From: Hydnum rufescens UP504
Taxonomy: Eukaryota; Basidiomycota; Agaricomycetes; Cantharellales; Hydnaceae
Direction: 5' to 3'
Assembly: GCA_014904985.1 (NCBI GenBank)
Contig: MU128953.1
Location: 170,869-234,868, forward strand
DNA length: 64,000 bases
Part shown: one piece after another, positions 11,061 to 50,560 of the stretch
How positions within the stretch are numbered: position 1 is the stretch's first letter
How the letters are laid out: each line of letters begins with the position of its first letter
Position numbers and translations under genes: made by a program
The notes under the pieces: model-generated
What the model saw: only the letters and a program-made list of their open reading frames with translations
Database searches by the model: none
Told to the model about the DNA's origin: nothing

Positions 11061-11155
11061 TATTTTGTAATTCAGGTGGGGGTAGGGTCTAGGTTGGAGT
11101 ACCTCCAAAACTAGCCAAAAAATGTTCTATCAGTTAAAAGGGTTGGGAACGTGGT
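11061..11155 (+). repeat. Cassette 1 left-end sequence
   Basis: Starts TATTTTGTAATTCAGGTGGG and runs through AGTTAAAAGGGTTGGGAACG. The first 28 bp closely match 36652-36679 at the left of cassette 2 (CATTTTGTAATTAAGGTGGG and onward). A diverged copy of the full 95 bp lies at 11844-11935, on the other side of the 44-bp array. It is a candidate terminal or subterminal sequence of a mobile element. Confidence 0.5.
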
Positions 11156-11167
11156 CATAGGAGAGAG

Positions 11168-11840
11168 AATTCCTGACGCTATCGCCTGCGAGACGATAGC
11201 CTCTAATATTAAATTCCTGACGCTATCACATCTGAGACGATAGAGTCTAATATTGAATCCCTGACGCTATCACATCCGAGACGATAGCCTCCGATATTGA
11301 CTTCCTGACGCTATCACATGTGAGACGATAGCCTCTAATATTGAATTCCTGAAGCTATCACATCTGAGATGATAGAGTCTAATATTGAATTCCTGACGCT
11401 ATCACATCTGAGACGATAGAGTCTAATATTCAATCCCTGATGCTATCACATCCGAGACGATAGCCTCTGATATTGACCTCCTGACGCTATCACATGTGAG
11501 ACGATAGCCTCTAATATTGAATTCCTGACGCTATCACATGTGAGACGATAGAGTCTAATGTTGAATTCCTGACGCTATCACATCTGAGACAATAGGGTCT
11601 AATATGGGATTCCTGACGCTATCACATCTGAGACGATAGAGTCTAATATGAGATTCCTGGCCCTATCACATCTGAGATGATAGAGTCTAATATGAGATTC
11701 CTGGCCCTATCACATCTGAGATGATAGAGTCTAATATGAGATTCCTGGCCCTATCACCTGTGAGACGATAGGGTCCAATATTGAATTCCTGACCCTATCG
11801 CCTCTGAGACGATAGCCTCTAATATTGAATTCCTGACTCT
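11168..11840 (+). repeat. 44-bp tandem array with CTATC..GATAG palindrome, left
   Basis: About 15 units of 44 bp. Each has TTCCTGACGCTATCACATCT followed by GAGACGATAGAGTCTAATAT, so each carries an imperfect palindrome CTATCxCxTxTGAGACGATAG. The same unit in the opposite orientation forms the array at 26985-27990 on the other side of the two cassette genes. Late units drift to CCTGGCCCTATC. Confidence 0.85.
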
Positions 11841-11935
11841 CTCCATATTTTGTACTTCGGGTGGCGCAAGGACCCAAGCTGCAACACTAGCAACAAAATG
11901 TTGTTTCAGTTAAAAGGGTTGGGAACATGGCCGGC

Positions 11936-12994
11936 CATAGAGAAATGTCAGTGATCATTAAGCGGACATGTGTATAATATCAGTACCGTCCATAATAGAG
12001 TATAAATGTATATAATTGTAATACAGCCTGTGAGAATAGGGTAGAAATGGTTATAATTGTGGTATCGTCTGGTGAACGATAGGGTAGAAATGGCTATAAT
12101 TGCAGTATCATATGTGAGACAATAGAGTAGAAATCGAGGCAACTTGGGTATCGTCTGTGAGACGATAAGGTAGAAATGGCTATAATTGCAGTATCGTCTG
12201 GGAGACGATGGGGGAGAAATTGATGCAACTGGGTAACATTTGTGAGAGAATAGAGTAGAAATAGACCAAACTCAGGTATCGTCTCTGAGATGATAAGGCA
12301 GAAATGGCTGGCATGGCAGTATCATCTGTGAAACGATAGAGGAGCAATTGATGCCACTGGGTATGATCTGGGAGATGGTAGTGTAGAAATTGACATGACT
12401 CAGGTATCGCGATATTGATGGAGTTAATTGTGGCATCATCCATGAGGCAATAGAGCAAGAATAGATGCAATTGAGCTCTTGGCCATGAGATGAGAGAGAA
12501 GAAATGGTCAGTACAGATGTTTGAAGAATGGAAGACCCAGCTCCAAGGGTGGTAGAGGTAGCTCGGCGCGGATGATGTATGTGGAAAGATGTGTGCACTG
12601 AGAGTGATATGGAGTCAACTCTGTTATTTATAGCTTAGGTAATCATAAGAACACAATGTATAAGAACTCGGTAAGAGGTTTACGCATGCCCTACTTGTAC
12701 ACACTTGCCTACCAGATTACTGTATCTTTGAGAAAATATGGGAAATGGTCAGAAGCTCCGATATCATCTGATATCATCTGCGGGATGATGGCATAAGTTT
12801 GAAGAAAGCAGGATATCGTTCATGAGATAGGTGATAGAGTCAGTCTGAAGGAACTTGGACATCGTCCATGAGATGATGAAGTGCAATGGAAGAAACTATA
12901 ATATCATCTCAAGCATAAGTCAATTGTACGGAAAATTGTGCGGAAAATACATATCGGTAATCTCCGGCAGACGGCTCGTAACTGTACTTGGATC
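11936..12994 (+). repeat. Palindrome-rich 5' flank of cassette 1 gene 1
   Basis: From about 11980 to 12450, units of roughly 60 bp contain TATCGTCTG..GAGACGATA variants next to GGTAGAAATGGCTATAATTG. Sparser ATATCATCTG..GGGATGAT and CATCGTCCATGAGATGATG copies occur at 12760-12910. No gene is seen. The start codon of gene 1 follows at 12995. A weak TATTTATAG lies near 12621. Confidence 0.6.
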
Positions 12995-15900
12995 ATGACT
13001 GCCCCGAAACGCCAGCAATCCTCAAAAGGGAAGGCCTCAGAAAGCAGCCAGAGAGATGTATGTGATGCAAGTTGAAGGAAGGCTTTCCTGACATATCTAT
13101 TCTAAGGTCACAGATCGGCCTGAGGACTCATTCTCGCTATCGATTGCACCAGTCAACAATAACCAGAACCTACTGAGTGAGTTTGGCATGAACAAAGCGA
13201 TTAAGGACATGATGATTGGGCACTGCTCGGTTGATTTGAGCAGGGTAAAAAAAGATGGATGGGTGTTCGGGAAATGGAATCAACGAGGGATTGACCGCTC
13301 GCATGTAACTCGTATGGTGGAACGCCTGAAGCAGAAACGGATTGTGGACGAAGACTCGGGGATTGCAATTGCGCTTCGTCGTTCCTGGTTTACGACAACG
13401 TTAGAACCAACTCTGAATGGGAAGCTGGTCCAGGATCTACCCCTCCTAGAATTAACCCCCGAGGGCAAACAGGCTCAAGGACACGGTGAATTCAAGCCAT
13501 TCGGGGGTAATCATCGACGTGCAGCAGTCGAGTTCATCGTTCAGGATGTGAAGAGGCGACTCGAGATGGCCATGGATCGCCTCGATCTGGGCATGGATGG
13601 ACCTGACACGAAGACAACGCGTACGAAGGAACAAGAAGCAGACTATACAGCATGGGTGGAAAAGGAAACTCAGCTAATTGGGTATCTGAAGGGCGAATCC
13701 AAGTGGAATATGCTGTGGCATCTCAATATCTGGGATTTAGGTAAGTACAGTTAAGACTGATAGAGGGTATAATTCATAGTGAGAATGGACATTGAATAGA
13801 TGCGCTGGAATCGGTACAAGGATATTCGCATGAAGACATTTCGATTCATCTATCACGAAATTCGAATAAGTACGTCTACTTGGAGACGGACTCGGAACGC
13901 GTGTTCCTGGATCTCCGGGGCGTGCGGGAGGCCCTGGCCTCGGACGACAAGGCATGGGTACAGATGACGCAGAAATTGGCCTCTGGGCGCGACCTGAAGA
14001 TCACACTGGCCCAGCCTCAAGAGAATTTCAAGCGCGCGCTTGAGAAGCATCTCGAGGGCACGATTGGGATGTACAACTCGACGCAGAACTCGATGCTGTC
14101 ATCACCCTATGCTGTACGGATGATGTCGCGATATGTAGCGTTTGGCGATCATTACTTCAATGGCCAGTATGCGACAATCCGGGGATTGCGTGGGTTGATA
14201 GACCAGCATATGTGTGGAGTGCGTGCCTTTATCAATTTGAGTGAGAAAGGAGGAGACTAATTGGATATACATAGATAATATCTACGATCTTTGAGGTCAA
14301 CTGCCGAATCATACAGTTGGCTGGATCGAAGGAGCCTGTGGGAACACAGGAGGAAATCGACGAACTCGCGGACGACCGACGATCAAAGGTGTGGGGGACC
14401 GACTCGAAAGGGTGGTGGAAAATGTACAAGTCCGCTGGACGCCATGCCGGAGACATGGGATGGGTGGCAGAGGTGATGCCAGTGTTCGAGAGTGCATTCG
14501 ATTCAGCATTCGTGGCTGATGGTGTCATCGTGCAAGAGTTCATGACATCGACGAGGCCGTACATGGATGCATTCAAGGGGTACATGTCAGAGGTGATGAC
14601 GAAGTTTAGGGAGAAGGCAGAAGAGGATGGCCCTGAATCGAGGTATCTGACGATTGGAGAACGGCTTGAGTGGCTATTAGGGAACTGGCCGTACAACAAG
14701 GGTGTCCCGATGCCAGTTATTACGAATCGGATGATGGGATGGATGGAACAAAGGTTGAAGCCAATACAAGGAGGGATTGAGGAGGTGAGTCTTCAGATGT
14801 ATCTGAAGGTTGTCTCATGGACGATGGGAGTAGTGTATCGAGAATCCAACTTATCGTCTCACGGACGATAGGGGGTGTGCTGAAAATGTACCTTATCGTC
14901 TTGCGAACGATAGGGTAATCTCTGTCGTACCGCGATAATCTGGGGATTCATTCCACTTATCTCCAACTGTTAACGTTTCTTTCCTTCAGCTGGGTACCTG
15001 GTTTGATCCACTCGCCATTCATATGATCAATTTCTCGCACTCGAAGTCCAAGGCTCGAGATCTTTCCGCTGCAATGTTTGATTGTATCGCTCGAGATAGC
15101 GCGCTTCACGATGTATCCGATGCCATTGAACAGGTATCTGATTCCATAGATACTACAATTGTATTCAGACTCACTCTTGTCGCAGGTAGCTTTCTTCGTA
15201 CTCATCAATGCCCACAAGGTCATGGTGGATTTTACATCGGCCCTTTTTGACCTCCAACAGGAGATTGGTGTTCGCCCTGCCGCTAATGTGATCAAGAAGA
15301 TACCGATCCCTATGAGTACTGGGCGAAAGGGAAAATCGAAAGACGAGAAGGCAGCGGAGTCATTCTTCTCCTTGCTCACTCCTCCTGTTGATGCGGCCAC
15401 GATTGATTCCTCCTGGACGAAAATGAAGCCCACGATTGGGACTTCGAAAGCCGTGCACCGAGTATCTCCAGACATTGAAAAACGAATGTACGCAGTCACC
15501 ACAGTGGGGATGACGAAGGACTACGAATATGCCTTAATGTCGTTACTCGTCGAGCGGTATTTCGTCGACTCATATAGGCCTCGCCTGCTGGGCACGGTGG
15601 GAGGGGCGCAGGTGAGACAGCAGGTGACTGACATCCTGAGCTCATATTGGGAGCCCGAGGAGGAGAGCTCGATCACGACATTCCTATTCTGGGATGGTTT
15701 AAAGGGTGATCCGAAGGCATCAAAGGAAGGTCCCTTAATGTCGATGGCTGAGCGGAACCGCGCGACTATTGTCAAGGCCCTTCAACAGGGGAATAAAGAC
15801 TTCAATCAACGTATCATAAATATGGTCGAGAAAGGTAAACAGGCTCATGAGAACTTTGATATGAAGAGCCCACTGGGCAGCGGGATTCGGCGGGCGATTG

Positions 15901-17026
15901 ATAAACTCATCTGGGTAGGTCCCTGTTCACAACCCCGTTGTCAGTGGATTTGATTTTGAGGGATTTCCCTCTCCAGGAGCTCGAAGTTCACCAGGAACGC
16001 CAAATACTGGCACTCCATCCTAAGGGAGGGCAAAGGAGGACACTGTTCGAGTCCGACATCCCAACGTGGACGTACAAGCATGTTCAGTCTGTTGGGAGAC
16101 ACTTGTCTCCGCCTCACAGGGTGACGCCCGCGCGCAGGTTCGGAAAGCGGTCGGAACGATCGCTTAGTCTAGAAAAGGGGAAGGGTCCAGGTACTCGTAC
16201 TCCGCAAGCGGGGAGGAAGCCTACCTCATCAGATGAGGAGGATACTGACAGCGAGGAAGATGATGGCGAGGAACCGGAATCTGAAGAGGGTTCAGACACG
16301 GACGAGACTACAGGTGTTCAGGGACAACGCAGCCGTGGACATGATGATGGAGAGCGCGGCAGGCCTAAGTCGACAAAGGCCACGAGCAAAGGATCGACCC
16401 CCCAAGGAGCCGAGCGAGTTGGAACTGGTTCAAAGGCGAAGATTCACGTTCCGGGCACTCAGTCTACCGCGGGGCCATCGAGTCCTCATGCGCCGGATGT
16501 CGAGTCCAGATCGAGTTCGTTGTCAGAAGATGGACGACCGTTGGCTTCAGTGATTCCGGAGACATCAGTTCCTAAGGTGGCTGCTGCAGCCCGGACGTCC
16601 ACCAGTCGTGAAGGGGCTCAGACAGCTGCGGGTGGATCTGGATCGGGAGGAACCACGACGAGAACTGGCCTACGCTCTGGAGGGCCACCGGGTAAGTGAA
16701 AGGGACGATCTGTTGACATTTCGCTGGACACTTATGTTATCTATCCGAAGCGTCCATGGCCAAGCAGACAAGCACCGGCAGTATGAAACGTGGTCGTTCG
16801 TCAACCGATGCAGGTACCTCAATATTCGAATGTGCAGCAGGTTGTATCGTTCTGACTTCTTGCTTGCTTCCACCTTCACACAGCATCGTCGAAAAGGACC
16901 AAAACCAATGATCACTCAGGTATGTGATGTTGGAGCTGCCACTGACTGCTTGACAATCTCATACCCTGTCTAGCTGCGTCTGCGGCCACTCCGAACTATC
17001 AACGATTGACTCGTCCTGGATTTTGA
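12995..17026 (+). CDS. Cassette 1 gene 1, ParB-like motif protein (1121 aa predicted)
   Basis: Ten exons by splice rules and comparison with the paralogue at 37041: 12995-13057, 13107-13740, 13800-14218, 14275-14784, 14990-15133, 15186-15914, 15977-16691, 16751-16813, 16884-16919, 16974-17026; all phases agree and the sum is 1122 codons. Residues about 60-165 resemble a ParB/sulfiredoxin-type N-terminal domain: HCSVDL, then FGKWNQRG, a helix-like VTRMVERLKQKR, then FGGNHRRAA at about 153-161. The middle (to residue 833) is conserved with the paralogue but of no known family; recognisable blocks are NKYVYLETDSERVFLDL, SPYAVRMMSRY and RLEWLLGNWPYNKG. The C-terminal tail is disordered with a strongly acidic run (about 914-943) and basic KRTK-type clusters that could be nuclear signals. 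Two acceptors are AAG (13106, 16750), less usual. Function is inferred only: DNA binding, possibly to the surrounding palindromes. Confidence 0.7.
14852..14912 (+). repeat. Two palindromes in intron 4 of cassette 1 gene 1
   Basis: TATCGTCTCACGGACGATA at 14852-14870 and TATCGTCTTGCGAACGATA at 14894-14912. Both lie inside the intron 14785-14989. The equivalent intron of the paralogue (from 38816) carries five palindromes of the other family. Confidence 0.85.
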
Positions 17027-17159
17027 GCTATAGCGATGAACGGTGCTTGAAGCTTTGTAGAGGTCTTTGTCATGAATTCACCCCCCCGAATTGGATGTGA
17101 ATAAATATCGCCTTGTGATGATTAAACACATGCTGGATCGTAAGAATAAAGATATGGAA

Positions 17160-18600
17160 TGATATCGTTTGACAGACCGCGAACGGAGATTGGACGCTAT
17201 CGTCTCGGAGACGATAGGGAAAGAAATCGCAAACTAGAGAGACAATGGGGGAATCGAGGCTCCAGTGAAGATATAGAGTCCTATCGTCTTTCAGACGATA
17301 CGGGGAAGGAAACAGATCTTCGTTGTATTGTTTGTGAGACGATAGGATAGGGGACCGGTGTTGGATAATGGATCGTATCGTCTGTGAGACGATAGGATCC
17401 GTTATTGAACACTTTGGCCCTATCGTCTCGCAGACGATACGACCCAGGGTGCGATTCCATCCCCTGTCGTCTGTGAGACGATACGATCCATTATCCGATA
17501 CCACCTCCCTATCATTACACATGAGACAACACAAGATCGGATGCCTTCCCCTATCGTCTCGCAGACGATACGACCCAGTATTTGAGTCCTTCCTCTATCG
17601 TCTCACAGGCGATATGGAGAAGAAATCAGATTCTGGGATATATCGTCTGTGAGACGATAGGGGGAGGGTAATGGATATTGGATCCTGTCGGCGGCTCATA
17701 GATGATGATAGTGGATAGGACTAATATGCTGGAACCCATCGTCTGTTCGACGATGGGGTAGAAGAGTATAAAGCAAAACATGGGACCCTATCGTCTCATG
17801 GACGATATTGCATATATGATGGCACAACGGGGATACTAGGCACCACTACTTCGCCGATGATAGGATGGAAATCACGGAAGGGAGATATTGGACTCCATCG
17901 TCACACAGAGGATAGATTACGAAGAGTTTCTTCGAAATAGCATGTATTTGTCTCACAAACGAAGGAATATAATATACATTGCGTGAAGCACGCAATACAG
18001 GGTATCATTCGAGAAACGATACAGAAATCCCTTCAACCAATCGGATATCGTCTCGCAAACAATACTGTGGGGCCTATATGGGATCGCCTTGGGCATGACA
18101 CTCGAAACCAGATGTACTGTATAGAGGGTACCTGAATTGTGAGAGGACCTTGACCCAGATTTCACAGCGCACTGATATGAATCTCGGACATCAAAGAGAT
18201 CCAGAAGCCACCTTATCAGCAAGACACGTTAGTCTTGTTGATATTGGTGGCAACATCACGTCAATACCGAGATTGACATTATGCGCGTGAAATGTGGATG
18301 AAAGGACGAAGAGGGGAATACAAAATGAGAAGGGGACATCTGGGCTTTATATGCTGAATGGAAATGTATGTGGCGCAGTTCCAGATGAAGGATCTCAGGG
18401 TGATCGCTCATTCTAGATCTGGGACATATCCGCTTCGGCAGAGCTTTCTTCGACCCAATAGTTTGGTCTCATCACTCCTGTTTATTCACACAACAGGGTC
18501 GTGCATGGGTCACGTCTGGGGCGTGTCTGGAATTTTCTACAGATGACTGAGTCGCAGCTCGAGCAGGTCCAATATCGGCGATTGCTTCCCGAAAGAGGGT
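17160..18600. repeat. Dispersed TATCGTC..GACGATA palindromes after gene 1
   Basis: Some twelve palindromes between 17195 and 17780, spaced 40-70 bp, such as CTATCGTCTCGGAGACGATA and TATCGTCTGTGAGACGATAG, with unrelated spacer sequence. Three weaker ones follow at 17880-18070. From 18071 to 18600 I see no gene and no repeat of note. The palindromes, not the spacers, are conserved, which argues for selection on the site or for gene conversion. Confidence 0.7.
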
Positions 18601-20965
18601 CACAGATCAAGATCAAGATGATCCAATATCGTGTCACGGGCGACAGGATTTCGGGATATTATCGGATATCGTTTGGCAAACGATAGGGTCGCAGATCAAA
18701 GTGATCGGATGTCATCTCACGGACGTCAAGACGTCCAGATATCACCGGGTATCGTTTTGCAAACGATCGGGTCCCAGATCAAGATGGTGCGATATTGTCT
18801 TGCGCATGACAGGATAGTTTGCGGATATTATAGGGTATCGTTTACCAAACGATAGGGTCGCAGATCAAGATGATCGGGTATCTTCTCACGGATGATAGCA
18901 TAGTTTTCGCATATTATTGGGTATCGTTTGGCAAACGATAGGGTCACAGATCAAAATGATCAGGTGTCATCTCACGGACGTCACAATTTCCAGTTATCAT
19001 CGGGTATCGTTCTGCAAACGATAGGGTCGCAGATTAAGATGATGCAATATCGTCTCACCCACGACAGGGGAGCTTCCAGATACTGTCGGGTATCGTTTTG
19101 CAAACGATAGGGTCACAGATCAAGATGATTCGATCATGTCTCACGGATGACTGAATAGTTTTCGGATATTATCGGGTATCGTTTGGCAAACGATAGGATC
19201 TGGCGACCCTATCGCTTTCCAAACGATCCCGATAATATCCGCAAACTACTCTGTCCTGCGTGAGAAGATATCCGATCATCTTGATCTGTGACCCTATCGC
19301 TGCAAACGATACCCGATAATATCCCGACATCCTGTCATCCGTGAGATGATATCCGATCATCTTGATCTGTGACCCTATCGTTTGAAAACGATACCCGATG
19401 ATCTCTGGAAATCCTGACGATATCCGATCATCTTAATCTGTACCCTATCGTTTGCCAAACGATACCCGATAATATCAAAAACTATTCAGTCATCGTGAGA
19501 CATGATCGAATCATCTTGATCTGTGACCCTATCGTTTGCAAAACGATACCCGACAGTATCTGGAAGTCGTGTGACGATAGATCTATCTGATACGATGATA
19601 TGTGAGTCGTGATGACTGTCATTTTATCTGTGACTATGTTTCAAAGATACCAATATATGAAACTTGTACACGTAGAGATCGATATCTTGATGGACTATCG
19701 ATCTTGATCGCATCGTCAACGAGATACTGATGGGACGTGTGCGTCGAGGTCGAGTCATCGATGTATTGCAAACGATGATATGTCGGATCTATTCGTCATT
19801 CTGCTCACGCGAGTCAGAATTTCAGATGAATCGATCGGGTATCGTTTGGCAAAGCGATAGTGGGTCAGCATCAAAATGATCAGAAGTCATCTCAGGGACG
19901 ACAGGATTTCCAGATATCATCGGGTATCGTTTGCAAACGATAGGGTCACAGATCAAGATGGTGCGATATGATCCGGTATCGTTTCACAAACGATAAGGTC
20001 ACAGATCAAGATGATCGGATATCATCTCGCCGATGACAGGATGTCGGGATATTATCGGGTATCGTTTTCAGACGATAGGTTCACAGATCAAGATGATCGG
20101 ATATCTTCTCACGCAGGACAGAATAGTTTGCGGATATTATCGGGTATCGTTTGGAAAGCGATAGAGTCGCAGATCAAAATGATCAGATGTCATCTTAGGG
20201 ACGACAGGATTTCCAGATATCATCGGGTAGGGTCACAGATCAAGATGAGGCGATATTGTCTTGCGCATGACAGGATAGTTTTCGGATATTATCGGATATC
20301 GTTTCACAAACGGTAGGGTCACAGATCAAAATAATCGGATATCATCTCACGGACGACAGGATGTCCAGATCTCATCGGGTATCGTTTTGCAAACGATAGG
20401 GTTGCGGATTACGATGATGGAATATCGTCTCACCCACGACAGGGGAGCATCCCCATATTGTCGGGTATCGTTTGGCAAACGATAGGGTCACATATCAAGA
20501 TGATTCGATCATGTTCCACGCATGACAGGATGGCTTCCGGATATTACCCGGTATCGTTTTGCAAACGATACGGTCACAGGTCCCAATGATTCGGATTGCA
20601 TCTCACGACGTCAGGATACCTCCCGGATATCATCCGGTATCGTTTCTCAAACGATACGGCCCCAGATCAAGACTATCTGGTATCGTCTGAGGATAATTGG
20701 ATAGCTATAGCAGATGAACCGGAATCATCTCCCAGACGACAGAATCGCGGCTCGAGATCCACTATTGTTGATGACTTTCGAATATCATCCGGCGTTGTTT
20801 TGCAAACGCCACGTCCCAGCTCGAGATCCACGACATGCCATAGGGGCACTCGATGATACTGCGGTATCGTCTCACTGACGATAGGGGCACTTTCTGGAAT
20901 CTCCCCACAGCCTCTCGCAGACGATATGCTCAATCTCTTGAATTATTTCTCATCCTCTCACAGAC
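18601..20965. repeat. Long palindrome array with TATCGTTT..AAACGATA variant and internal inversion
   Basis: Units of about 85-180 bp combine GGGTATCGTTTGGCAAACGA (plus TAGGGTC), CACAGATCAAGATGATCGGA and a second palindrome like ATCATCTCACGGATGA. The block 19205-19560 is in reverse orientation relative to 18600-19200 and 19835-20660, with a sharp switch at about 19200-19205. Near 20690-20965 the sites return to the TATCGTC..GACGATA form. No protein-coding signal is seen. Confidence 0.75.
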
Positions 20966-21533
20966 GATAGGGTCCAGAACCATACCCGTCTGTACATGAT
21001 ACACATTCTACATGTCAGCCTAACCCTCTTATATCAGAAATATCAGATTTCCACTTCCATTATTTAGCTCTGGAACCATGACTGTCTGTGTCTCCCACCA
21101 TTCTTGCTCCACACTTGTTGGGCCTTGGGACCTCGTCTCCCGAATCCTTCTTCTATTATCGCTTTCACCTTTCTCCCTCCCCTTTCTCTCCCTGTACTCA
21201 ATGATATCCACTTCTCTGATAAGATCATCCGACAATCCAATCAAAACTGAAATCACCTGCTTGTCGAGTCCATACTTTCACCCCTGTTTCCCTCCAATAA
21301 CCCTGGTCATTCAATTCCCAAGCCCATCACTGCTGGTCTACCGCATCTACAGACCTATGTTAGATCCCACAATGCTCCACGCCCTGGTATCATCTCCTCA
21401 ACCTCTCGCCATGGCTGGCACGTTTGCCCCTTCGGGCATTGCCCTCGGCTTTCTCCATTTCTCATTCATAGTCTGCCCCAAACCCCAATCTTTTCTCCCC
21501 ACTGCATTCTCAATCCACTCTTCACGACCCATC
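20966..21533 (+). other. Upstream region of cassette 1 gene 2
   Basis: Pyrimidine-rich leader without palindromes. An open frame is continuous with the chosen start at 21534, but its content (Ser/Leu/Pro-rich from C/T tracts) is not conserved in the paralogue, so I treat it as 5' UTR or promoter. CTTATATCAG near 21028 is only a weak TATA candidate. Confidence 0.45.
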
Positions 21534-36679: not shown

Positions 36680-36712
36680 TGGGGTTAGGCAGGGGTCAAG
36701 AATGAAGAGATA

Positions 36713-38850: not shown

Positions 38851-39088
38851 CCCGGGTCGTCTCTTGGGACGACCTGGGAAACATGTTGAATCTTCGTGTA
38901 TTCCCGGGTCATCTCCCGGGACGACCCGGGAAACATGGTGAATCTTCGTGTATTCCCGGGTCGTCTCCCGGGACGACCCGGGGAAACGTGTCGAATCCTC
39001 TTGTTTTCCCGGGTCATCTCCCGGGACGACCCGGGAATACACGTCAAATCCTCTTGTTTTCCTGGGTCGTCTCTTGGGACGACCCGGG
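38851..39088 (+). repeat. Five GGGTCGTC palindromes in intron 4 of cassette 2 gene 1
   Basis: At 38851, 38903, 38955, 39008 and 39061 (step 52-53 bp), for example CCCGGGTCGTCTCCCGGGAC (continuing GACCCGGG), with spacers like AACATGTTGAATCTTCGTGT. They fill the intron 38816-39136, the same intron that holds two TATCGTC palindromes in cassette 1. Confidence 0.9.
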
Positions 39089-40994
39089 AATTTAGGCACC
39101 TCGGTTGGAACAATACTGATACCTGTGAATGAATAGATAGGGGCGTGGTTCGACCCTCTTGCTTGGTACAACAGCGAACACTCCCACGCAAAGACCAAGG
39201 TCAGGGATATGTCATCTGCCCTCTTCGACGCGATCCTCCAAGATCCTCTCATCACCAAACGCATCCACGATGCTACCGAGGCCGTGAGTCCACTCCTTCC
39301 CTTCCTTCCTGCATCTCACTTACCTCCCGCAGGTCGCCGCCTATCTCCTCTTCAACTCCTTCGGCGCCCTCGTCGACCTCACCCGTTCCGTCCGCTCCCT
39401 CCATGAACGCTCCGGAGCACGGCCCCCCGCTTCCATCATCAAATCTATCCCTACCCCTGGTCTCCGCTCCCGAGGAAAGGCAAAGGCAAAGGCTGTCGAT
39501 GCCGAAGAATCCTATCCCTTCTTCGGCTCTCTCGATCCTCCCGTCCACGAAGAGGTCATCGACCGCGCTTGGTCATCCCTCAAGGCTGCTTGGGACGACT
39601 CAAAGACCGCTCTCCGCTCCTCCGACGACACCGAGAAGCGCATGATCGCCGTCACCGCCATTCCCGACACCAAGGACAGGTCCTTCCCCCAGATGGCTCT
39701 CCTCGTCGAAAGACACTTCGTCGACCATTATCGCCCCGCCCTCCTCAAAACTATCGGGGGCGCTAACCATTCGACACGAGCTCCAGCTCCTCGTCGCTCT
39801 CTATACTGATCAGAGGACCTTCCCCTTCTGGGATCTCCTCGATCCCTCCCCTCCTGACTCTTCCTCTCTCCTCTCCCCCGCTGAGATCGACCGCCTCAGC
39901 GCCCTCGAGTCCGACCTCTCCGAAGGTCGCAAATTCAATCAGAAAATCCTCTCCCTCGTCGAACGCTCCAAGTTCACTCATCTCAACTTCGACCCAAAGA
40001 CTAATCTCTCCGGCGGTATCAAAAACGCACTCGATTCTCTCCTTTGGGTATGCCCTCTCCTTCGCACTCTCCCCCATACTAATCTTCCTTATCAGGAACT
40101 CGAATTGCACCAAGAACGTCAGCGCCGCGCCCTCTATCCCGCCCTCGCGTCAGAAAAGCTCCCAACGCCCCATCCTCCACAAACAGGATGTATCCAGAGC
40201 TTCCTACTCTCGCTTCTCCGCCGTCTCCGCCCCTCTCCCACCCCCTCCCACCCGCCCCACTTCTTCCCCCCCGCCTCAATCTCGTCCCGCTCCTTCCTCC
40301 TCTCGCCCTCGTCGCCCAAGCGTCCGCATTCAAAGCAAACCATTCATCAATCAAGATGATGACTCTGACAACGACGACCAATCTGACGATGACGATAAGG
40401 GCGCAACCACCACCGACGCCCCAAGCGAGGGCTTCGATCTCGAGCATCCCGAGGGAGACAACGACGATGACGCCACCGATGAGGACGTTCCTCATCCCCC
40501 ACTCCTGCCTCCCCAATCCCAGTCCGACCAGGACGATGACGAAGATGACCCCAATCTCCGCACCCCCATCCCCCTCCAACGCTCCTCCCAACCTCGCTCC
40601 GCCCGTCGCATCGATTCCCCACGCCCTTCCCCTTCTCCCGTTCCCTCCCGCAATTCCCCACACATCCTCGTCCCCGATTCACAACCTCCTCGCCTCTCCC
40701 TGGGCCCACGTGACCCTGCCCTCCCCCCTTCATCACTCTCCCTCCCATTCCACCCGCACATCCCCCTTCCCCCTCGATGTCCCCATCAACATCCGCTCCT
40801 CCTCCCCCCTCCCATCCCTCTGTCTCCGACTCTCGTCGCAGTGCCGTCCTTCCGCCGCTCCTTCTCATGTCACTCGTTCCTCGGCAAGGGAGACTGCCTC
40901 CTCCTCCTCTCTCACCCCAGGTAGGTACCATTGTCTATCTTGTTTCTCTCTCTCCCTCTCCTCTCAAGGACTCTTGAGAAATATCGTCTCGTTT

Positions 40995-41022
40995 CCCGGG
41001 TCGTCTCGCGAGACGACCCGGG
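40995..41022 (+). repeat. Single perfect GGGTCGTC palindrome in a 3' intron of gene 1
   Basis: Perfect inverted repeat CCCGGGTCGTCTCG / CGAGACGACCCGGG, extended on each side by TTT and AAA. It lies in an intron that begins at about 40921 (GTAGGT). Confidence 0.9.
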
Positions 41023-41577
41023 AAACAGACACACTCATTATACGACTTCATCCATAGTGTTCATCCTGTATACATCCCCTGGCTCTCCTCCCCTCCTCTC
41101 GTTCTCTTTTTATCGCTTATTCACTCTCCTTTCTCTCTCTTCCAGATACCCACCGTACGCCCGCCTCTCTCCCTCTCTCCTTACTCTCCTCTAGGAACCC
41201 TCTCAAACACTCCTCCTCCCCTTTCTCACTCTCACTCACTCCTCCTCTCAGCTTCTTCAAAGAAGTTCAAGTCCGCTAAACAATCCGGTCCATCTAATCC
41301 TTCCTTCTCTTCTCCTTCTCACCTCCCCACTCTCCCTCAGGTCGGACCTTCACAAATCACCTCACCCTGGCCTTTAGTCCCTTTCTCTCCCTCTTTGTAC
41401 TCCTTCCTCTCTCAATATATCTTCCCTCTCCCTCTTTCCTTCAGACCCTCTTTCCCCCTTCTCCCTGATTACGTAACTTCCTCCTTTCTTTTTCACTCTT
41501 ATCTTCCCATAAATCTCATGTATATAAATATCCCTTACCAATTCATCTCTCTTCTTTCTCTCACCCCTTTTCCCTAG

Positions 41578-43200
41578 TCTCTCTTCTACATAAATATCCC
41601 TTCCCAATTCCATATCCCTTCTTCAACTTCCTCCCTTTTCCCTAACTTCAACTATCCTCTCTCTTACACATCTTCCCATCCTCCTAACTTTCTCTTCCTC
41701 ACTATCTTAATTCTATTTCTTCTCTCCCCATCTACTCTTCTCATCCCTACAATCTCATACATCCCTACTAAATACTACCCTACATATACTCCCTCCCAAA
41801 CACACTCTCTCCATCACTCAATTCTCCTACAATACATACCCCACAATCTCTTAAACACAACAATCAATCAATTCAATTATATCCCAAATTATATCCCCAT
41901 CATCCTACACACATTCATATCAATATCCAATCTTCAAATCAAATCAATCCCCACATTCCCTCACACTATTTTCTCTACTCCAACTCCACACATACCATCC
42001 CACTATAATTCCCACTAAACTATTCAATCTCCACATCTCAATTATCAATTCTCTTTCCTCAATCAACTACTCCCTCAGTCCCCACACACCACTCAATATA
42101 GTCTATCCCAACTCACTCTACCCACCTCATACTCCACTCCACCCCCCTACCCCACATACATTTACATTCAACACTGTATCCACCTCAACTCCTCTACATC
42201 TACTCCACATCCTCATATACACACTCAACCAACTCCATCACAATTCAACTTCCCCTCTACCAATCATACTCCTACTCCTTCTCTCCTCAAACACATCCCT
42301 CCAACCCTCACATCAACTCCCATATCACATACACTAACTCTCAATCAATTACTTTACTCAACTCTCAACCTCCTCTTCTTCTCCTTCTCCAATTTACCCT
42401 CACTCTCATACCCACACATCCCACTCTTCAATTCTAAATCATCCTCTCAAACATAGTCTTCTCATCAAATCATTTCCCCCCTTCTATTCTCCATCCATAT
42501 CATTCATCCCTTTCTCCCACTCACTCATACACAAATTCAAAACACACTCCTTCACACTCCTCCACACTCCACAGTCAATCCATTCAATCTCTCCTTCCCA
42601 ACCTCTCCCACCCACCATCTCATACCTGGCAATCATCCCCTCCCACTACCTTCCCAACTCAATCTCATAACAACTCACCCCAACAATTCCTTCTTTCATC
42701 ACTCAACAGAGCCCCCTTAGCCCTATCTCTCAACAAACTCCTCTCCCATCCATCCAATCCCCACTCCCAACCCCCATTACATAATCAATCATCATCTATC
42801 TCCCTTAACCCCAACCACAACACACTATCACACCAGCTCCAACAGCAGTCCCTACACCCATCACCCCTAAACCTCCCCACAATCCCCACATCCCTCTTCA
42901 AGTCCAGTATATCCAGCAGTCAATACCCAAACTCCAGCCAGAGAATCACTCCCAATCCCTCATCAAGCCAACCCATCAAAATCACCACATCCAGTCAACA
43001 GGAGCATTCCAAGATCTTCCAGGAGGTAGTTCCCATCACCAGCACAATCAATGATGTAGTAGCCATCAACCCAGCCATCCATCCCACCCCACCTGTCCCC
43101 ACCATGTACCCCTCAAGATATCTCCCAACCCATGTCTCCACTAGTCCCCAACTTACCACTCAAGAATATTCAGATAATATCCGGAATCGTCCGGTCTCAA
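41578..43200 (+). other. G-depleted tract between cassette 2 genes
   Basis: No G occurs on the plus strand from 41578 to 42077 (500 bp), and G stays rare to about 43000. Composition is A, C and T in no obvious tandem order. No gene is seen. It lies 3' of gene 1 on the sense strand, so a transcript through it would have almost no G. Confidence 0.9.
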
Positions 43201-43270
43201 CTATACATTTTCTCATCCGGCTTTTTCTCATCCGGCTGTGTTTTTCGTTCTACTCTGTTCCCCATCTCCA

Positions 43271-46200
43271 ATGACTGACCTTGAAGAGAATAACCAACCC
43301 ACAGGTCTCCACCAAGACAACCCTGAACCACCCAGGTAAGCATCTCACCCAACAGAGAACAGATATCACCCTCTCAACTCTCAACCAAGTAGCCATGACA
43401 ATGATGAGAATAGTGGAGAACCCCGCCACGATGTCAACTATGTCCACCCGTCCCTTGTGAGTGAAGATGGGCTCCGGCAATCCGACATAGCAGCAGCGGC
43501 CATAGCCCCTGGCATTCATCCAGCGTATAAACGCGACCAGTACTCGTCCATCCCACTCAATCCCATCCCACTCTCGCGCTTGCGCGACTATTTCCTCAAT
43601 AAAAGCTCCCACTCAGCTGCCAATCTCCTCCACAAGCGCACAGTCGTGCACATAGATGATAAATACCGGTGTGACCCGCACTCTGATGAAGTCCATCTCA
43701 CGAACCCTATCCATCGCCTTGATTATCGACTCACAGTTGCAAACTCGATTGGACTTGGAGCGATCATACCGAATGCGCGAGCCAACCATAACTTTTCCAT
43801 GAATCTTGATTTCCGCAAGCCCTACTCGGGACTTCAAAGACAAAGCGGGACGACTAGGATTCTCTCCAGCGGGACAGCATGCTGTTCATTGGGTACTACC
43901 TTCAGGATGAGGCGTGGCTAGCGATGGCCCCGCACAGCTACCTTGAGGGTGAAGAGGAGGGAGCGTGCGAGCCGGGGAGTGTGAAAGGGGGCACGACGCG
44001 CCTCTTGCGCGCGCAGTATCGCATGGTCATCTCCTTCTTTGCCTTTCTTCTTTCGAAGAATCGGGACAAGTCGTTTATCTGCACGCAACCGTATGGGGTC
44101 TCCCTCACCGATGCCGAGCCTAACTTCCACAACCACTTTTCGCTTCTGTGAGTCCGAGGGGAGAGACTGAAGAGCAGCTGAGAGATACTGACGAGAGGTG
44201 AATCCCAGAGATGCACAATATGCGTTCATAGTCATGCGCATCCAAGATCTGAAGCTGCTTGACCAGCACATGGTCAGGCACTGGCATGAGTGGGTAGCGC
44301 CGCGCCAGCGGCGTGGCGAGCCGATGAGTGGCTCAGCACGCATGCGCCCATCACAGTGACGTGCAAGTACGGCCAAGACCAACAGATTGGAGTTGAAGAC
44401 GAGGCGGACACCTGGCAGCAAGAGCGAGACTATGGGCGCATCCGGCACATGTCCTTTGCGCTTGCGAGTGACATAAGGTATGAGTGCACGAGTGTGTAAT
44501 GAGAGGAAGCCGAGCACTGATGTGGAACACAGTGCGCAGATAGCACAAGGCTTTGAAGACATCCCTGCAGCGACGATCCGAGGACAGCATGACGTGCTGT
44601 ACGATTCGTGGGACGCTGACCTTCGAGTTGAGATAGAGGACCTTGAGGGGCTTCCGCTGCTCGACGACAGTGAGAAGGAGATCCGCATCTACAACCAGGA
44701 GGGGAACCGAGTGCCGCGGCGGGAGCCGCTCTTCTATGGCGACGAAGCACCGTGTGGAGTGCTGCTGAACCTGGCGACGTGTGAGGCACTGTTCGTTCTT
44801 GAGCCCTCTATGATTGATGAGGGAGAGGAGCATGTCTATGTCTCAGTGTATCCACAGGCGTATCTGCGGCACATTGGGCACATGCGCGCGAACTGTGTCA
44901 TGCGCGACTTCCGTGCAGTCATCAAGCGCATCAACAACACCATCACGCACCCTGAGGGGGAGTCGGATGACAGTGATGATGAGATAGAGGCCGAGTATCT
45001 GTCTGCGCGGCCTGCTGCGCTGTGGGGGACGTCCTTCCAAGCGTACAACGAGATGGTGCACCGATTTACGGACCGCACGGAGGCATGGACATCCAGCAAG
45101 GCTCGCTGACTGCCGCCGCGTCTGGACGATATGCGCGCGATGCGCGAGATGTGCGCACCGCCAAGGGGCGATCTGCACATTGTCGACGAGCTTCTTCCGC
45201 ACGAGCGCATGACTGAGAAGATGGAGCTAGAGAACAGTCCACGCGACCTTCGACTTGAGCAGGTGTACACGCTCGACCTTCATTGTATGCCTGAGGAGCA
45301 CCGCAATGGCCGGTCAGTCATTCTGTGTCTTTGAATCATCTCTTCATCCATTACTGAGTCATCCTCCCTTCTGTGCCAGGTACATCTACCGCAACATCAT
45401 CCTCCCGCTCACCGAGGCATGGCGATCCCCGAAGCCTTGCCACCCAGCTCAAGGACCACCTTGTTGTTCTTACACCTGAGGTGAGACCCCCTCTCCCTGG
45501 CCCTCTATGTGTGATGCTGACCCGCTGACCTGTGACCTTGTGCTGCTCCCCCAGTGCTACCCACACATCTACGACTGGGTCAGCTACCCAGTCCAGGCCA
45601 TGCTCAGCATGGCCTGGCGCCAGGTCTCACTCCAACCGGAGCATGATCCCAAGGACCCGAAGACCCTCCCCTCCCCTGTATCTTGTCGAGGTCATCGCTC
45701 TTCTTGAGCGCTCCCTTGCCTATGCATATACGGGCAGTGCCAAGGTCATCAGCCGCTCCCTCATGGAGCCCATGTTCACCTCCCGTGCCATCATTGACCA
45801 AGGCTACCCGATGGTCAACCAGTCCATTGCCACTGTCAAGATGAACCAGGAGACCCGACGCCCCGTACATAGCCATCTCTGCGCTCAACTGGCCCTGGAG
45901 CTCCGACAAGCGAGCCCCGGCCACATGTTCCGACTCTGCACAGAAGATGTACTACAACGAGGAACTGCTACAATGTACGTGTACATGTCATGTTTTGCTC
46001 GTTTTCCCGGGTCGTCCCGCGGGACGACCCGGGAAATGGGCGGATATTGACGTGATTTCCCGGGTCGTCTCTAGGAGACGACCCGGGAAAACAACCAACA
46101 CTGGTGTCCAACATCGATGCACGAATGCGTTGTTTTCCCGGGTCGTCCCGAGAGACGACCGGGAAACCACGTCAATATCCGCCCATTTCCCGGATCGTCT

Positions 46201-47900
46201 CTCAGGGACGACCCGGGAAAACAGTAGAAAGGAAGACATCATCGATCAGACACTGACATGCCCCTCATAGATGTACATCGCCATGTTCTCAATGATGCAC
46301 TCCACCAGCGCCGCAGGTGACTCCGCCTTCACCGACATCACTCTCCCCACTGACAGAAAGGCTACCATCATCGCTAAAGATCGCCATCAACGCACTCGTC
46401 AGAGACACTGTCACACTCGTCAGGGAGGGTGTCAGGGAAGACTCCGCCTCTCGCCGCGCACTCCGCCCCCTGGACCACGACCTCGACACCGCTCTCGCTC
46501 ACCGCGACGACGATCTCATCGCTTGGGCTAATGACCCTAGACCTCTCGACTTCGGAAACAACACCCACGCCACCCTCCTCCGCATCCTCAACGTGGGCAC
46601 TTCCGCCTCCGTTCTCTCTCTACCTGGCCCAAAGGGAAAGGACCTCACTCCCGCCGAATTCGCTGCCTCCCTCTATCATCTCGCGGGACCAGACTCTCAC
46701 AACAGGCGCATCACCGACCCCTTCCTCCCAAAGGGCTCCGCCCATCCCGTCTTCGTCATCGCTTTCGAGCACCTCCACGCCCTCCTCGGATCATCAAAGA
46801 ACGACACTCGCGACTTCGCCATCCGCATCTTCGCAAAGGCCCTCCCCCGCTTCGGCATTCGCCACGTCCCCACCGCCCCCGTCCCAACTGGCTCTGGCGC
46901 TCCTGTAAAGAGACCCGTATGGAACTCCTGGATCTCCCTTGGAAGACCACACCCCGTAGACGTCCAGGTACATGGGCCCTCCCTCTCAAAACACTCCCGC
47001 TTCGTTCTCTGCCTCTCAGCGCGGCCAGGCTTCCGCTCAGAAGTCCCACGCCGACGCCCCTTGGGCTTCAACAGACTTCACCCTCAATGACCTCCCCTCC
47101 TCCTCACCAGAGACTCCCTCCCCATCGACTGGTCCCTCCCTCCCGACTCCGCAGACTCCATCGCCGCCGTCTACAAATGGGTCCATGCTAACTTCGCCTT
47201 CGCCAATCCCCTCCATCGGTTCGCCCTCATTCTTGCCATTGTCCTCGCAAAGTGCGCACCTTCCCACTCCTTCCCGAAGATCCTCCACCCCTCCCTCTTC
47301 GATCCTGCCGCCCGCGCTTTCACCCCAGATGGAAAGAACATCAGATTCGTCACCAAATTGAACAGCAAGGGCCACCACAACCAGGCCATCCTCTTCAACA
47401 TGTGGGCCGTCTACATCATCGCCCTTGTCGACTCTGACAGCCCCATGGGCTCCCTCTCCGCAGACAAAAAGGGTATGGGCCCCGCTTGGACTAAGAAACA
47501 TGGCTCAAAGGGCATCTCTTCCGCAATGCTCATCTTTCTCGGCATCGCTTGGGGGTCTAGTATCACCAAACTCGTTGGTGGATACACTGGCATCCATTGG
47601 GGCATCAGGTCAAAACGCGAAATCATCACCCTCTTCAACTCCTTCTCTGCCTCCCTCAACGCTGATCCCACCTTTGGCCCTTATGATGCTGTCGCTTCCC
47701 TCATCGGCCACCCTAATGCTTCCGCTCTCGCCACTTCCCAGGGCCTCAACATCAGAGCCTCTCCCTTGCCTTCTCTCCCTTCCTCCTCTTCTGCTCCCCC
47801 TGGAAAACGCCCCCTCCCTCTCAATCTCTCTCCTTCCTCCCCTCCCTTTGACAATGACTTCCTGGATGGCCCCTCCTCTCACAAACGCATCCATCTCTAA
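43271..47900 (+). pseudogene. Cassette 2 gene 2, paralogue of the 1342-aa protein, with frameshifts
   Basis: Start MTDLEENNQPTG; first exon 43271-43335 is 65 bp like its paralogue. Conserved blocks in order: HRLDYRLTVANSIGLGAIIPN, DEAWLAMAPH, TVTCKYGQDQQIG, ACGVLLNLATCEALF, RDLRLEQVYTLDL, YDWVSYPVQAML, ERSLAYAYTGSAKVISRSL, SVLSLPGPKGKD, NSKGHHNQA, GPAWTKKHGSKG, THWGIRSKR-like IHWGIRSKRE, GPYDAVASLIGH and the C-terminus SSHKRIHL. At least eight one-base shifts are visible, near 43840-43880, 44310, 45085, 45430, 45670, 46385, 46960 and 47095, several in runs of one base. The last exon uses C-ending codons heavily, unlike cassette 1. Long conserved stretches between shifts show the protein was under selection until recently, or that the consensus has errors. 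Confidence 0.6.
46003..46222 (+). repeat. Four GGGTCGTC palindromes in intron 6 of cassette 2 gene 2
   Basis: At about 46003-46036, 46055-46091, 46132-46166 and 46184-46222, such as TTTCCCGGGTCGTCTC with matching GAGACGACCCGGGAAA. Outer spacers also pair (GGGCGGATATTGACGTG with CACGTCAATATCCGCCC), giving a nested inverted repeat. The intron is 45975-46269. Confidence 0.9.
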
Positions 47901-50560
47901 CTCCTCTCTTCTCCTCTCTTCCTTCTCTATACTCCTTATTCTGGTTTATACTCCTTTGCTTTCCTCTCCTTATTCTTGTTTATATACCCTCTGAGATATT
48001 CTCCTTTCTCTCTTTTCCTCTACTCTCTCTCCTGTAATATATCTCTACTCTTACTTACTGCCCCCTAATATATTCTCTACTCCTTCCTGCCCCCCTAATA
48101 TATTCTCTACTCCTTCCTCTCCCCCCTCCTCCTTCCTTCTCCCTTCTGCACAGCCACCCCTTCTTATTCTTACCTTTTCCACTCACTCCACACTACTCAT
48201 CTTATCTCCTCTCAACTTCTCATTCTCTCTTCCTCATCTCTTCTCTCTCCTACTCCAATTATCCCCTACTACTTACTCACTTCCCACATCATCTCCCAAC
48301 TACCTCAATCAATTCCATCAATTATACTCTATTCTACTCCTCAAATTCCTCCCTTTCCTTTCATTATCATATTCCATCATCAATATCCCTTCTCCAACTC
48401 CTTCCTTTCCCCTCATTTTCTATTTTCCTTAGCCCCCCCCCCCCCAATTCCCACTTCAACTTCCCAATTTCATTTCATACTCAATCCATTCCACTCTCTC
48501 TATTCCACACTCTCACATTCCCTTAACCCACACTTACTCACTTAAACATCCACACCCCTCCCACCCCCTAATCCCCAAATATCTCCCTCACTTTCACTCA
48601 AATCTATTCCAATTTCTTTATCTCTCCCAATCTCCACTACACAACTCAATTTCACTCTCTCTCCCAATCCACTCCCAAAATCCTCTCAAATTTCCACATC
48701 AATCTCTACCACATCCACATCAATCACATTAATCCTTCCCCTTCTACAATCATTCTCTCTTATCTTCAATTCCATCATTTCTCCTCTTTTTCCATTATTA
48801 ATCTCAATTATTCTCCTCCCCCTTTATCTCTCTCACTACCCATACAATCTACTCCAACCAACCACTTCCCATTCTCTTCACAACTCAATTTCCTTCCACA
48901 ACCCATATACCATATTTCTTTATTTTCATATCTCCTTCACTTTTAATCCTTTTCACTTCATTCCTTTTTCATCATTTCAACCCTAATCCCCCTTTCTCCC
49001 ACTTACCATTCCTTTTTTCTCCCACATATATCAACCCCACCACATCCAAATCTCCATCATTTCCCCCCAACCCTCACCTCTTACACCTCCTCATCTTACC
49101 CTCACTCCAATATACCTCTAGTACTCATCACATTTTCAATACACTCTCAACACCTCCATCATCACTCTCAAATCACATCTAAACTACACATCTCCTCACT
49201 CAAACACCAACCCCACCTTAGCAACTCAATTTCTTCATCTCTCCACACACCCTTTCATTCTCAATTCAATAATCTAATCATCCCCTCTAGCACACTCAAC
49301 TAGCACAATTCCTCCTTACACCCCCCACATCACTTACCATTATCCATCCCCTCTTCATCCCTTAACCATTCAGCCTCCTTAATAATCCCACTCCCAAATA
49401 CTCCTACCTCTAGTATATAACTACCTACTCCTCTATTCTCCAATCCCTTACAACATTCACAATATATCTCAATCATTCCCTTCTCTTCATTCCCTTTATT
49501 AACTCATCAACAACAATCACTCCTTCCTCCACTTCTCTCACAGCCTCATCCTCATCCTCTCCCCTCTCTCATCAATCATCTTAGGCAATACTCCTCATAC
49601 ATCACCATTCATTTACATCATCACAACCAACCCTTTCCCCTTAGTCCTTCTTCCTCCATCCCTCTCTCCTCTCTCCACCTCCTTTATCTTTCCTCCACTT
49701 ACTCACCCTTACTTCCCCTTATCTCTCTTTACAGTACACAATCAAACAGAACTAGCTCACAAACTAGTTCACTTCTCTTCTCTTGCCACAATAAAACCCT
49801 ACTACATACAACACCCATCCAAACCACCCAACTACCTCCTCAAAACCACCCAACTGCCCAACTACCTCCTCAAACCCCCCAACTACCTCCTCAAATCAAT
49901 CCAATATCCAATCCACTTCTCTTCTCTTCATACCTCTTCATTTCAACTCCTCCTTTCATTATTAAATCCCACCTATTCCATCTCTCCACAATCATCACAA
50001 TTCATTCTTCCTCCACTTCAATTTCTATTTACCTCACATCCACCCAACCATCCCCACTCCCATTCAATTTTCCTCCTTTTCTCTAATACCCAATCCCTTA
50101 AGCCCAATATACAACTCTCCATTATCTAACCAACATCACTCAACCACTTCACATCCAACCTCTCCACCAGTCATATTCATAAATACACACTCACCCACCA
50201 CTCGCAATCTCTAAATCCTCAATTCCTCATCAACTTTTCATCACATTCACTTCCTAACATATCACCCACAAACCTACCACCCATACCTACCACATCATAC
50301 CACACATCACTTCCATCCATTAAAACACCCACTATCCACCTCATTTTCTCTCTCTTTCCATCCTCTTAAACTCTATTTTTCTATTTTCTTCCTCACTTTT
50401 CATCCAATTCTTTTCTTTCAATAACCTCCCCCAGATATACAATCAAGCATACACTCACCCCAACCAGTTCCACCATGTCCAAACTCAATCTCCTCACTTG
50501 CAATAGCACACCTCTCAACTCTCAGTACCTCCAGTATTCATCATCATTACACAACCCAGA
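47901..50560 (+). other. Extended G-depleted tract after cassette 2 gene 2
   Basis: No G at all from 48433 to 49120 (688 bp) on the plus strand, with G rare elsewhere in the block. No gene, palindrome or short-period tandem explains it. CTCC, TCCA and CACT words are common. It begins right after the gene 2 stop. Confidence 0.9.

What the first reader, a model, noticed from the sequence alone, without database searches (positions are those of the whole stretch)
11061..50560. Two paralogous two-gene cassettes, each with its own palindrome family
Cassette 1 (genes at 12995 and 21534) and cassette 2 (37041 and 43271) have the same two genes, order, strand and matching introns. Cassette 1 DNA is full of TATCGTC..GACGATA palindromes and cassette 2 of CCCGGGTCGTC..GACGACCCGGG. 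The cores agree (CGTCTC..GAGACG) and only the outer bases differ. I see no site of one type in the other cassette. That pattern fits a recognition protein and its site diverging together, as in selfish elements that avoid cross-talk. I know of no described fungal element with this make-up.
Basis: partly seen in the sequence, partly recalled or inferred. Interest (0 to 1): 0.93.

Follow-up and report, generated by a model that had tools for sequence, protein, structure and literature searches.

The report
Fungal transposons with matched palindrome sites
Two related, apparently undescribed mobile elements in a mushroom genome each carry their own kind of mirror-symmetric DNA site in their non-coding parts, and the kind of site appears to follow one of the element's two genes, as if each element marks its own DNA with a private code.

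Summary
The window (Hydnum rufescens or a very close relative) has two large elements, 44-49% alike in protein, with the same two orphan genes, order and shared introns. The palindromes are real and private: all 65 exact type-1 sites in the 63.2 Mb assembly lie in two type-1 elements, and all 39 exact type-2 sites in eight type-2 copies. No mixed element was seen among the loci read, even allowing CpG decay. The 29 type-1 sites avoid exons, their centre varies, and no arm change is compensated (0, against 43 one-sided), so they look like protein-binding dyads, not hairpins. Homologous introns hold each element's own type.

Site type there follows gene 2.

Site-bearing copies have lost 19-26% of CpGs at 3.4-4.9% transversion divergence; relics with decayed sites 95-100% at 4.4-5.3%. 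Best reading: a sequence-specific anti-silencing system that works like plant VANDAL/VANC, with unrelated proteins. Binding and demethylation are inferred. A role in transposition is the main rival.

The parts
11051..28143 (+). element 1 (type 1); left end fixed, right end approximate (28.1-28.24 kb)
   Evidence: left terminus shared by 17 places; right limit from comparison with C240 and from CpG o/e falling to 0.08 in the 28-29 kb bin
11051..11083 (+). left terminal sequence ATCC..TTTTGTAATTCAGGTGGGGG
11167..11850 (+). 44-bp tandem array with type-1-like palindromes (left subterminal)
12995..17033 (+). gene 1 of element 1, 10 exons; orphan protein
   Evidence: gene model is mine
14785..14989 (+). 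gene 1 intron 4 with an imperfect type-1 palindrome (14852-14870)
17198..20883 (.). intergenic array; 21 of the 29 exact type-1 sites lie between the genes
21534..26351 (+). gene 2 of element 1, 6 exons; DUF8190 in the database entry
24279..24668 (.). last intron of gene 2: six exact type-1 sites
26900..28000 (-). 44-bp array, inverted relative to the left one (right subterminal)
36642..53460 (+). element 2 (type 2); left end fixed, right end uncertain (at least 50560)
36717..36838 (.). three exact type-2 sites upstream of gene 1
37041..41300 (+). gene 1 of element 2, approximate end; frame changes
38855..39085 (.). gene 1 intron 4: five type-2 palindromes (three exact)
40991..41026 (.). 36-bp perfect type-2 palindrome in a late intron of gene 1
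43271..47900 (+). gene 2 of element 2; frame changes
   Evidence: P0004
46003..46225 (.). last intron of gene 2: four type-2 palindromes (three exact)

Best explanation
The cassettes belong to one orphan family of large two-gene mobile elements that has split into types with 44-49% alike proteins. Each type's non-coding DNA (upstream region, gene-1 intron 4, intergenic or late-intron stretches, last intron of gene 2) carries many copies of one dyad-symmetric site (half-sites TATCGTYT for type 1, CCCGGGTCGTCYC for type 2, variable 2-3 nt centre). SHOWN: exact sites are private to the type, are absent from exons in element 1, sit in homologous introns with the type proper to each element, and lack hairpin-type compensation. 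SHOWN IN ONE RELIC: site type follows gene 2, not gene 1. INFERRED: a dimer of the gene 2 product binds the sites of its own family. INFERRED: binding keeps the element unmethylated and expressed, i.e. sequence-specific anti-silencing, as VANC does for VANDAL transposons. Change of the protein together with concerted conversion of the site arrays would separate sister families. Gene 1 would then be the transposition protein, by elimination only.
For: Private sites 65 of 65 and 39 of 39. CpG-decay-tolerant scan of the window and 24 loci: type 1 only in c1, C240, C71b, C94b; type 2 only in c2, C294, C161, C13, C58, C94a, C152; none in seven 10-kb control loci. 0 of 29 exact type-1 sites in exons, which are 43.7% of the element. 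Two central positions 0.22 and 0.42 bits against 1.27-2.00 in the arms, 39 of 40 anchored units. 43 one-sided arm changes, 0 compensated, 3 two-sided uncompensated. C94b: gene 1 36.1% to c1 and 39.7% to c2, gene 2 75.0% and 39.7%; four type-1-like sites in its gene-1 intron 4, three in its gene-2 intron, one between the genes. CpG o/e 0.88 and 0.82 in the elements, 0.06 between them. CpG loss 26%/19% (c2-C294) and 21%/26% (C294-C13) at 3.39% and 4.85% transversions, against 95-100% for C161, C71a, C94b and C71b at 4.37-5.32%. Contigs C13, C58 and C294 show no gene 2 in three searches, yet these copies keep most CpGs, which fits protection in trans. Precedent: VANC21 binds in introns, intergenic and terminal non-coding regions; targets form tandem repeats that differ between related families (PMC5735166, parts read).
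Against: No DNA-binding domain was recognised in gene 2; both AlphaFold models are useless (mean pLDDT 36 and 33). The gene-2 link rests on one degenerate chimeric relic. CpG retention may only mean recent activity or recent death; the sites themselves contain CpG, so site loss and CpG loss are not independent. No methylation data. The copies fall into two or three lineages, so the type-by-element association is not phylogenetically independent. The type-2 pattern has a control count of 5. Palindrome arrays are common in this genome (another family has 2250 sites; the stretch between the elements also exceeds its Markov control). Ordinary TE lineages that are still active also keep CpGs.
Confidence: 0.45

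Rival explanations
1. The palindromes are binding sites of the transposition machinery (subterminal sites, as TnpA sites in CACTA elements), needed in cis for mobility; specificity differs so that families do not mobilise each other.
For: Inverted subterminal 44-bp arrays in element 1; a 1.7 kb derivative on C227 that keeps the left end and the array but no genes; C294 keeps the left end, gene 1 and its sites after an internal deletion.
Against: 21 of 29 exact type-1 sites lie between the genes and 6 in an intron, only 2 outside the genes; in type 2 most lie in introns or just upstream of gene 1. Subterminal sites would be expected near the ends.
Confidence: 0.27
2. One reading: the gene 1 product recognises the palindromes and co-diverged with them.
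For: Gene 1 is as diverged between the cassettes as gene 2; gene-1 copies on C13, C58, C82, C165, C294 and C312 all have type-2 sites and no gene 2 found on those contigs.
Against: C94b: third-lineage gene 1 with type-1 sites in its own intron.
Confidence: 0.12
3. Neutral palindromic satellites that spread within each element by tandem duplication and conversion; privacy is simple descent.
For: Arrays are tandem; site positions are conserved between type-2 copies by descent; several unrelated palindrome families exist in the genome.
Against: Variable centre with kept arms, no site in exons, the same introns occupied in both types with different sequence, C94b's left part carrying the type of its gene 2.
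Confidence: 0.11
4. The palindromes act as RNA or DNA hairpins (for example intronic RNA signals or cruciforms).
For: Arms of 8-18 bases with short loops; intronic places.
Against: 0 compensated against 43 one-sided arm changes; dispersed sites between the genes and upstream.
Confidence: 0.05

Closest known systems
VANDAL transposons with VANC anti-silencing proteins (Arabidopsis; PMC5735166)
   Same: Family-private short motifs accumulate in introns, intergenic and terminal non-coding DNA, often as tandem repeats; related families have different motifs.
   Different: That VANDALs are MULEs with a MuDR-type transposase is partly recalled; VANC proteins carry DUF1985 (figure legend read). No such domain was found here. 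VANC21's motif is the 9-base YAGTATTAY; here sites are dyads of 18 bp or more. No methylation or binding data here.
CACTA/EnSpm elements with TnpA subterminal repeats (recalled)
   Same: Two genes; subterminal repeats in inverted orientation.
   Different: No transposase hit; no clear terminal inverted repeat; sites mostly internal.
Fungal DNA transposons carrying TET/JBP dioxygenases (PMC12730594; start of abstract and two passages seen)
   Same: Fungal transposons thought to counter DNA methylation.
   Different: No TET/JBP or known transposase domain found here; its text has 0 occurrences of Hydnum and of Cantharellales.
Bacterial ParB-parS partition (recalled)
   Same: Palindromic sites read by a partner protein; a loose motif likeness in gene 1 seen by eye.
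   Different: No hit by HMM or tblastn.

Membership tests
VANDAL/VANC (MULE superfamily) | MULE transposase and DUF1985 VANC protein | tested here: not met
   8 cassette-1 exon pieces and 3 annotated proteins against Pfam: only sub-threshold hits to unrelated families
VANDAL/VANC (MULE superfamily) | family-private motifs in non-coding parts, often in tandem repeats | tested here: met
VANDAL/VANC (MULE superfamily) | element protein binds the motif and removes DNA methylation | not testable with these tools
   only the indirect CpG-loss contrast
CACTA/EnSpm | CACTA-type terminal inverted repeats and target-site duplication | tested here: inconclusive
   left end begins ATCC; right end and target duplication not resolved
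CACTA/EnSpm | known transposase domain | tested here: not met
ParB/Srx proteins | detectable ParB-type domain in gene 1 | tested here: not met
   structure model uninformative; no profile-profile comparison made
DUF8190 (PF26608) | precomputed PF26608 match of gene 2 | tested here: met
   listed for P0003 and P0005, not for P0004; the model is not in the local Pfam copy; function unknown
mobile DNA element in general | dispersed copies with a shared precise end in different flanks, and internally deleted derivatives | tested here: met
   17 left ends, control 0; flanks of those read; C294 and C227. Target-site duplication not shown.

The most novel reading that the evidence does not exclude
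A fungal transposon superfamily with no recognisable transposase carries a private address system: its DUF8190-class gene 2 product is a dyad-binding anti-silencer whose specificity has switched between sister families, with all sites in introns, spacers and ends rewritten in concert at homologous positions, even next to a gene 1 of another lineage. To my knowledge this would be the first VANC-like sequence-specific anti-silencing code outside plants, arisen independently.
Probability: 0.33. Interest if true: 0.92.

Novelty: new variant of a known kind. Interest (0 to 1): 0.78.

Why it matters
If true, it is a second, apparently independent case, in a fungus, of transposons that mark their own DNA with private binding sites, with two diverged site codes and a natural chimera in one genome. 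That makes a hard question testable with two proteins and two oligonucleotides: how do a DNA-binding protein and dozens of its sites change specificity together? If gene 2 protects or demethylates DNA at its sites, it is a lead to a sequence-specific epigenome tool. The proteins are orphans in the searches made, so the transposition chemistry may be new as well.

Tried and rejected
Family assignment by Pfam, NCBIfam, PHROGs and PDB sequence search gave nothing usable. Protein search of 5.8 billion sequences with gene 1, gene 2 and a 3-row gene-2 alignment found five proteins, P0001-P0005, all Hydnum rufescens UP504; only about 8000 candidates sharing most words were scored each time, so distant fungal relatives may be missed. 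Viral contigs: none. Fold prediction with 4 and 3 rows gave mean pLDDT 36 and 33, so no fold search was made. ParB idea: no support; the planned profile comparison was dropped after one search gave no diverse set. Terminal inverted repeats and target duplications: not resolved; a first guess of the right end at GAATG was withdrawn because C240 stays similar for about another 80 bp. GC-skew stretches: not pursued. Hairpin reading rejected.

Misses. Of the 12 gene-1 copies, C82, C165, C312 and C38 were not fetched and C71's was fetched only in part (no site seen in that part, L019). C82, C165 and C312 are type 2 by sequence (89-96% to cassette 2 in one exon). C38 is 42% to cassette 2 and 32-45% to cassette 1, neither type; it has no exact site of either type, and decayed sites could not be looked for. 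Of the 17 left ends, 9 were read (C13, C45 twice, C46, C58, C94, C161 at 99772, C227, C294) and 8 were not.
Full report
WHAT IS THERE. The window is G000:C45:170869-234868 of a 63.2 Mb, 539-contig assembly. Its gene 1 of cassette 1 is 97% identical over the query to a Hydnum rufescens UP504 hypothetical protein, and gene 2 98% over 61% of the query to another, so the genome is that fungus or a very close relative. Cassette 1 starts at 11051 and ends about 28.1-28.24 kb. Cassette 2 starts at 36642; its right end is unresolved, since a copy on contig C152 stays about 97% alike to 53430. The starts rest on a terminal sequence (ATCC...CCTYATTTTGTAATTMAGGTGGGG) whose inner part occurs 17 times in the genome (control 0), in flanks that mostly differ just outside it among those read. 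Gene models for cassette 1 have 10 and 6 exons. Between the cassettes the proteins are 44.3% (gene 1, 804 residues) and 48.6% (gene 2, 1301 residues) identical. Cassette 2 has frame changes, so I do not call it intact. dN/dS is 0.45 for gene 2 between cassette 1 and C240 and 0.25 for gene 1 between cassette 2 and C294, but 0.54-0.87 in several comparisons with relics.

THE PALINDROMES ARE REAL AND PRIVATE. Order-3 Markov controls give means of 3.2 and 0.9 palindromes with arms of at least 8, against 36 and 10 in the two elements; the stretch between them also exceeds its control (6 against 2.0). Exact genome-wide scans: type 1 (TATCGTYTN2-4ARACGATA) 65 sites, control 0; the list was cut, but 29 in the window and 36 in the fetched C240 loci make 65. 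Type 2 (GGTCGTCN4-8GACGACC) 39 sites, control 5, all on eight contigs. On C13, C58, C82, C165, C294, C312 and in cassette 2 the sites sit between -465 and +3838 of the gene-1 exon or, in cassette 2, also at +8828 to +8959, in the last intron of gene 2. These copies are type 2 by sequence: C312 96%, C294 94%, C82 91% and C165 89% in one exon, C13, C58, C294 and C152 by DNA. Because methylated CpGs decay, I rescanned the window and 24 loci allowing C->T and G->A at the CpGs: type 1 also in the relics C71b (2 sites) and C94b (8), type 2 also in C94a (3) and C161 (3). No element had both, and the seven 10-kb control loci L032-L038 had none. By elements that is 4 type 1 (by gene 2) and 10 type 2 without a mixed one, but these are only two or three independent lineages.

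THEY LOOK LIKE PROTEIN-BINDING DYADS. None of the 29 exact type-1 sites of the window lies in an exon, though exons are 43.7% of the element (P about 6e-8 if placed at random; array units are not independent). In 39 of 40 array units anchored on a downstream word the two central positions carry 0.22 and 0.42 bits and arm positions 1.27-2.00; flanking positions are also fairly conserved (0.62-1.66), as in any homogenised array, so the variable centre is the telling part. Among 21 distinct units there were 43 one-sided arm changes, 3 two-sided non-complementary and 0 compensated, against a hairpin. Type-2 sites, by eye on the list, form a longer dyad, TTTCCCGGGTCGTCYC-NN-GRGACGACCCGGGAAA. Type 1 has two subtypes: in the window 13 TATCGTCT, 14 TATCGTTT, 2 mixed. 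Gene 1 intron 4 and the last intron of gene 2 carry palindromes in both cassettes, each of its own type; in cassette 1 the intron-4 one is imperfect.

WHICH GENE DO THE SITES FOLLOW? The key object is the relic C94b: one left end at C94:141.7 kb, then gene 1, then gene 2. On residues common to all three its gene 1 is 36.1% identical to cassette 1 and 39.7% to cassette 2 (c1-c2 45.1%; 690 residues), a third lineage; its gene 2 is 75.0% identical to cassette 1 and 39.7% to cassette 2 (1166 residues). The pattern is even along most of gene 2, weaker at residues 1051-1200, and gene 1 has no cassette-1-like block except a slight lead in its first 32 aligned residues (59% against 56%). Its left end resembles type 2. 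Yet its sites, including four inside its own gene-1 intron 4, are decayed type 1. So here site type follows gene 2. This is one relic, and a nested insertion is not wholly excluded, although only one left end was found on C94. A second diverged gene 1, on C38, could not be read.

CpG EVIDENCE. Observed/expected CpG is 0.88 and 0.82 in the elements and 0.06 between them. In pairwise alignments site-bearing copies that differ by 3.39% (c2-C294) and 4.85% (C294-C13) transversions have lost 19-26% of CpGs; closer pairs (c1-C240 2.05%, c2-C13 1.91%, c2-C58 0.63%, c2-C152 0.51%) 3-13%. Relics with decayed sites that differ from an intact copy by 4.37-5.32% (C161, C71a, C94b, C71b) have lost 95-100%, C94a at 9.48% all. 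Transversions do not depend on CpG deamination, so the lineages that kept sites escaped it for a comparable time. Contigs C13, C58 and C294 gave no gene-2 match in three searches and these copies still keep most CpGs, which fits protection in trans. It also fits recent loss of gene 2 or recent activity, so this is support, not proof.

HOW IT MAY WORK. I think the gene 2 product, as a dimer, binds the dyads of its own family throughout the element's non-coding DNA and keeps the element unmethylated and expressed; tandem duplication and conversion supply many sites; protein and sites drift together so that sister families stop recognising each other. The parallel is close: VANC21 of Arabidopsis VANDAL21 binds YAGTATTAY in introns, intergenic and terminal non-coding regions, VANC6 acts on a different set, and the motifs form fast-changing tandem repeats in introns and upstream regions (PMC5735166: outline, first part of the Results and section 9 read). 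It works like that system but is not a member: no MULE or DUF1985 domain was found. The main rival is that the sites serve transposition: the gene-less derivative on C227 fits it; the mostly internal places of the sites do not.

NOVELTY. Protein searches found only Hydnum rufescens proteins, within word-limited searches. DUF8190 gave no paper, 'Hydnum rufescens' with 'palindrom' none, and 'Hydnum rufescens' with 'transposable elements' one genome survey, seen as a listing only; the other searches listed no such fungal element among the titles and abstract starts shown. Most subscription papers are not in that library.

CHANGES AFTER CHECKING.

Noticed in passing
window 41300-43000 and 47900-50600 (C-rich), 51000-53400 and 5000-9000 (G-rich): Kilobase stretches with almost no G (GC skew to -0.97) in element 2, followed by G-rich DNA; the 46.1-53.4 kb part is kept at about 97% in C152. 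Related G-rich repeats occur at other loci. Cause unknown.
   Followed up: partly
window 53822-54101 and 58290-60900; L027, L028, L039: Third palindrome family CATACGACN3GTCGTATG in a ~130-bp satellite: 35 sites genome-wide, only on C45, C152, C211, C294; on three of these four contigs it lies next to a type-2 element and may be its right part.
   Followed up: partly
genome-wide; e.g. L022, L032, L034: Very abundant palindrome CAAAAAGAGCAGCN2-6GCTGCTCTTTTTG (2250 sites, control 0), clustered, with an ACCACACACCC..GGGTGTGTGGT palindrome beside it; L034 has no open frame of 150 aa or more.
   Followed up: partly
L042 291-800 (C58): Six copies of a perfect palindrome CATGGGCGTCACTGACGCCCATG just upstream of a type-2 gene-1 copy.
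   Followed up: no
L048 211-1917 (C227), L047 from 228 (C46): Type-1-like left ends followed by 44-bp palindrome units without genes in the 2 kb read; C227 CpG o/e 0.21, C46 0.73.
   Followed up: partly
window 53467-54218 and 57940-58690: Near-identical ~750 bp stretches flank a 3.7 kb stretch with a reverse-strand open frame (54240-55145), not identified.
   Followed up: no
window 14785-14989 and P0001: The database protein for gene 1 reads part of intron 4, palindromes included, as coding sequence; probably an annotation error.
   Followed up: no
window ~13230-13560 (gene 1 N-terminal part): By eye, motifs NQRG..., GGNHRRAA resemble ParB boxes; no search supported it.
   Followed up: partly
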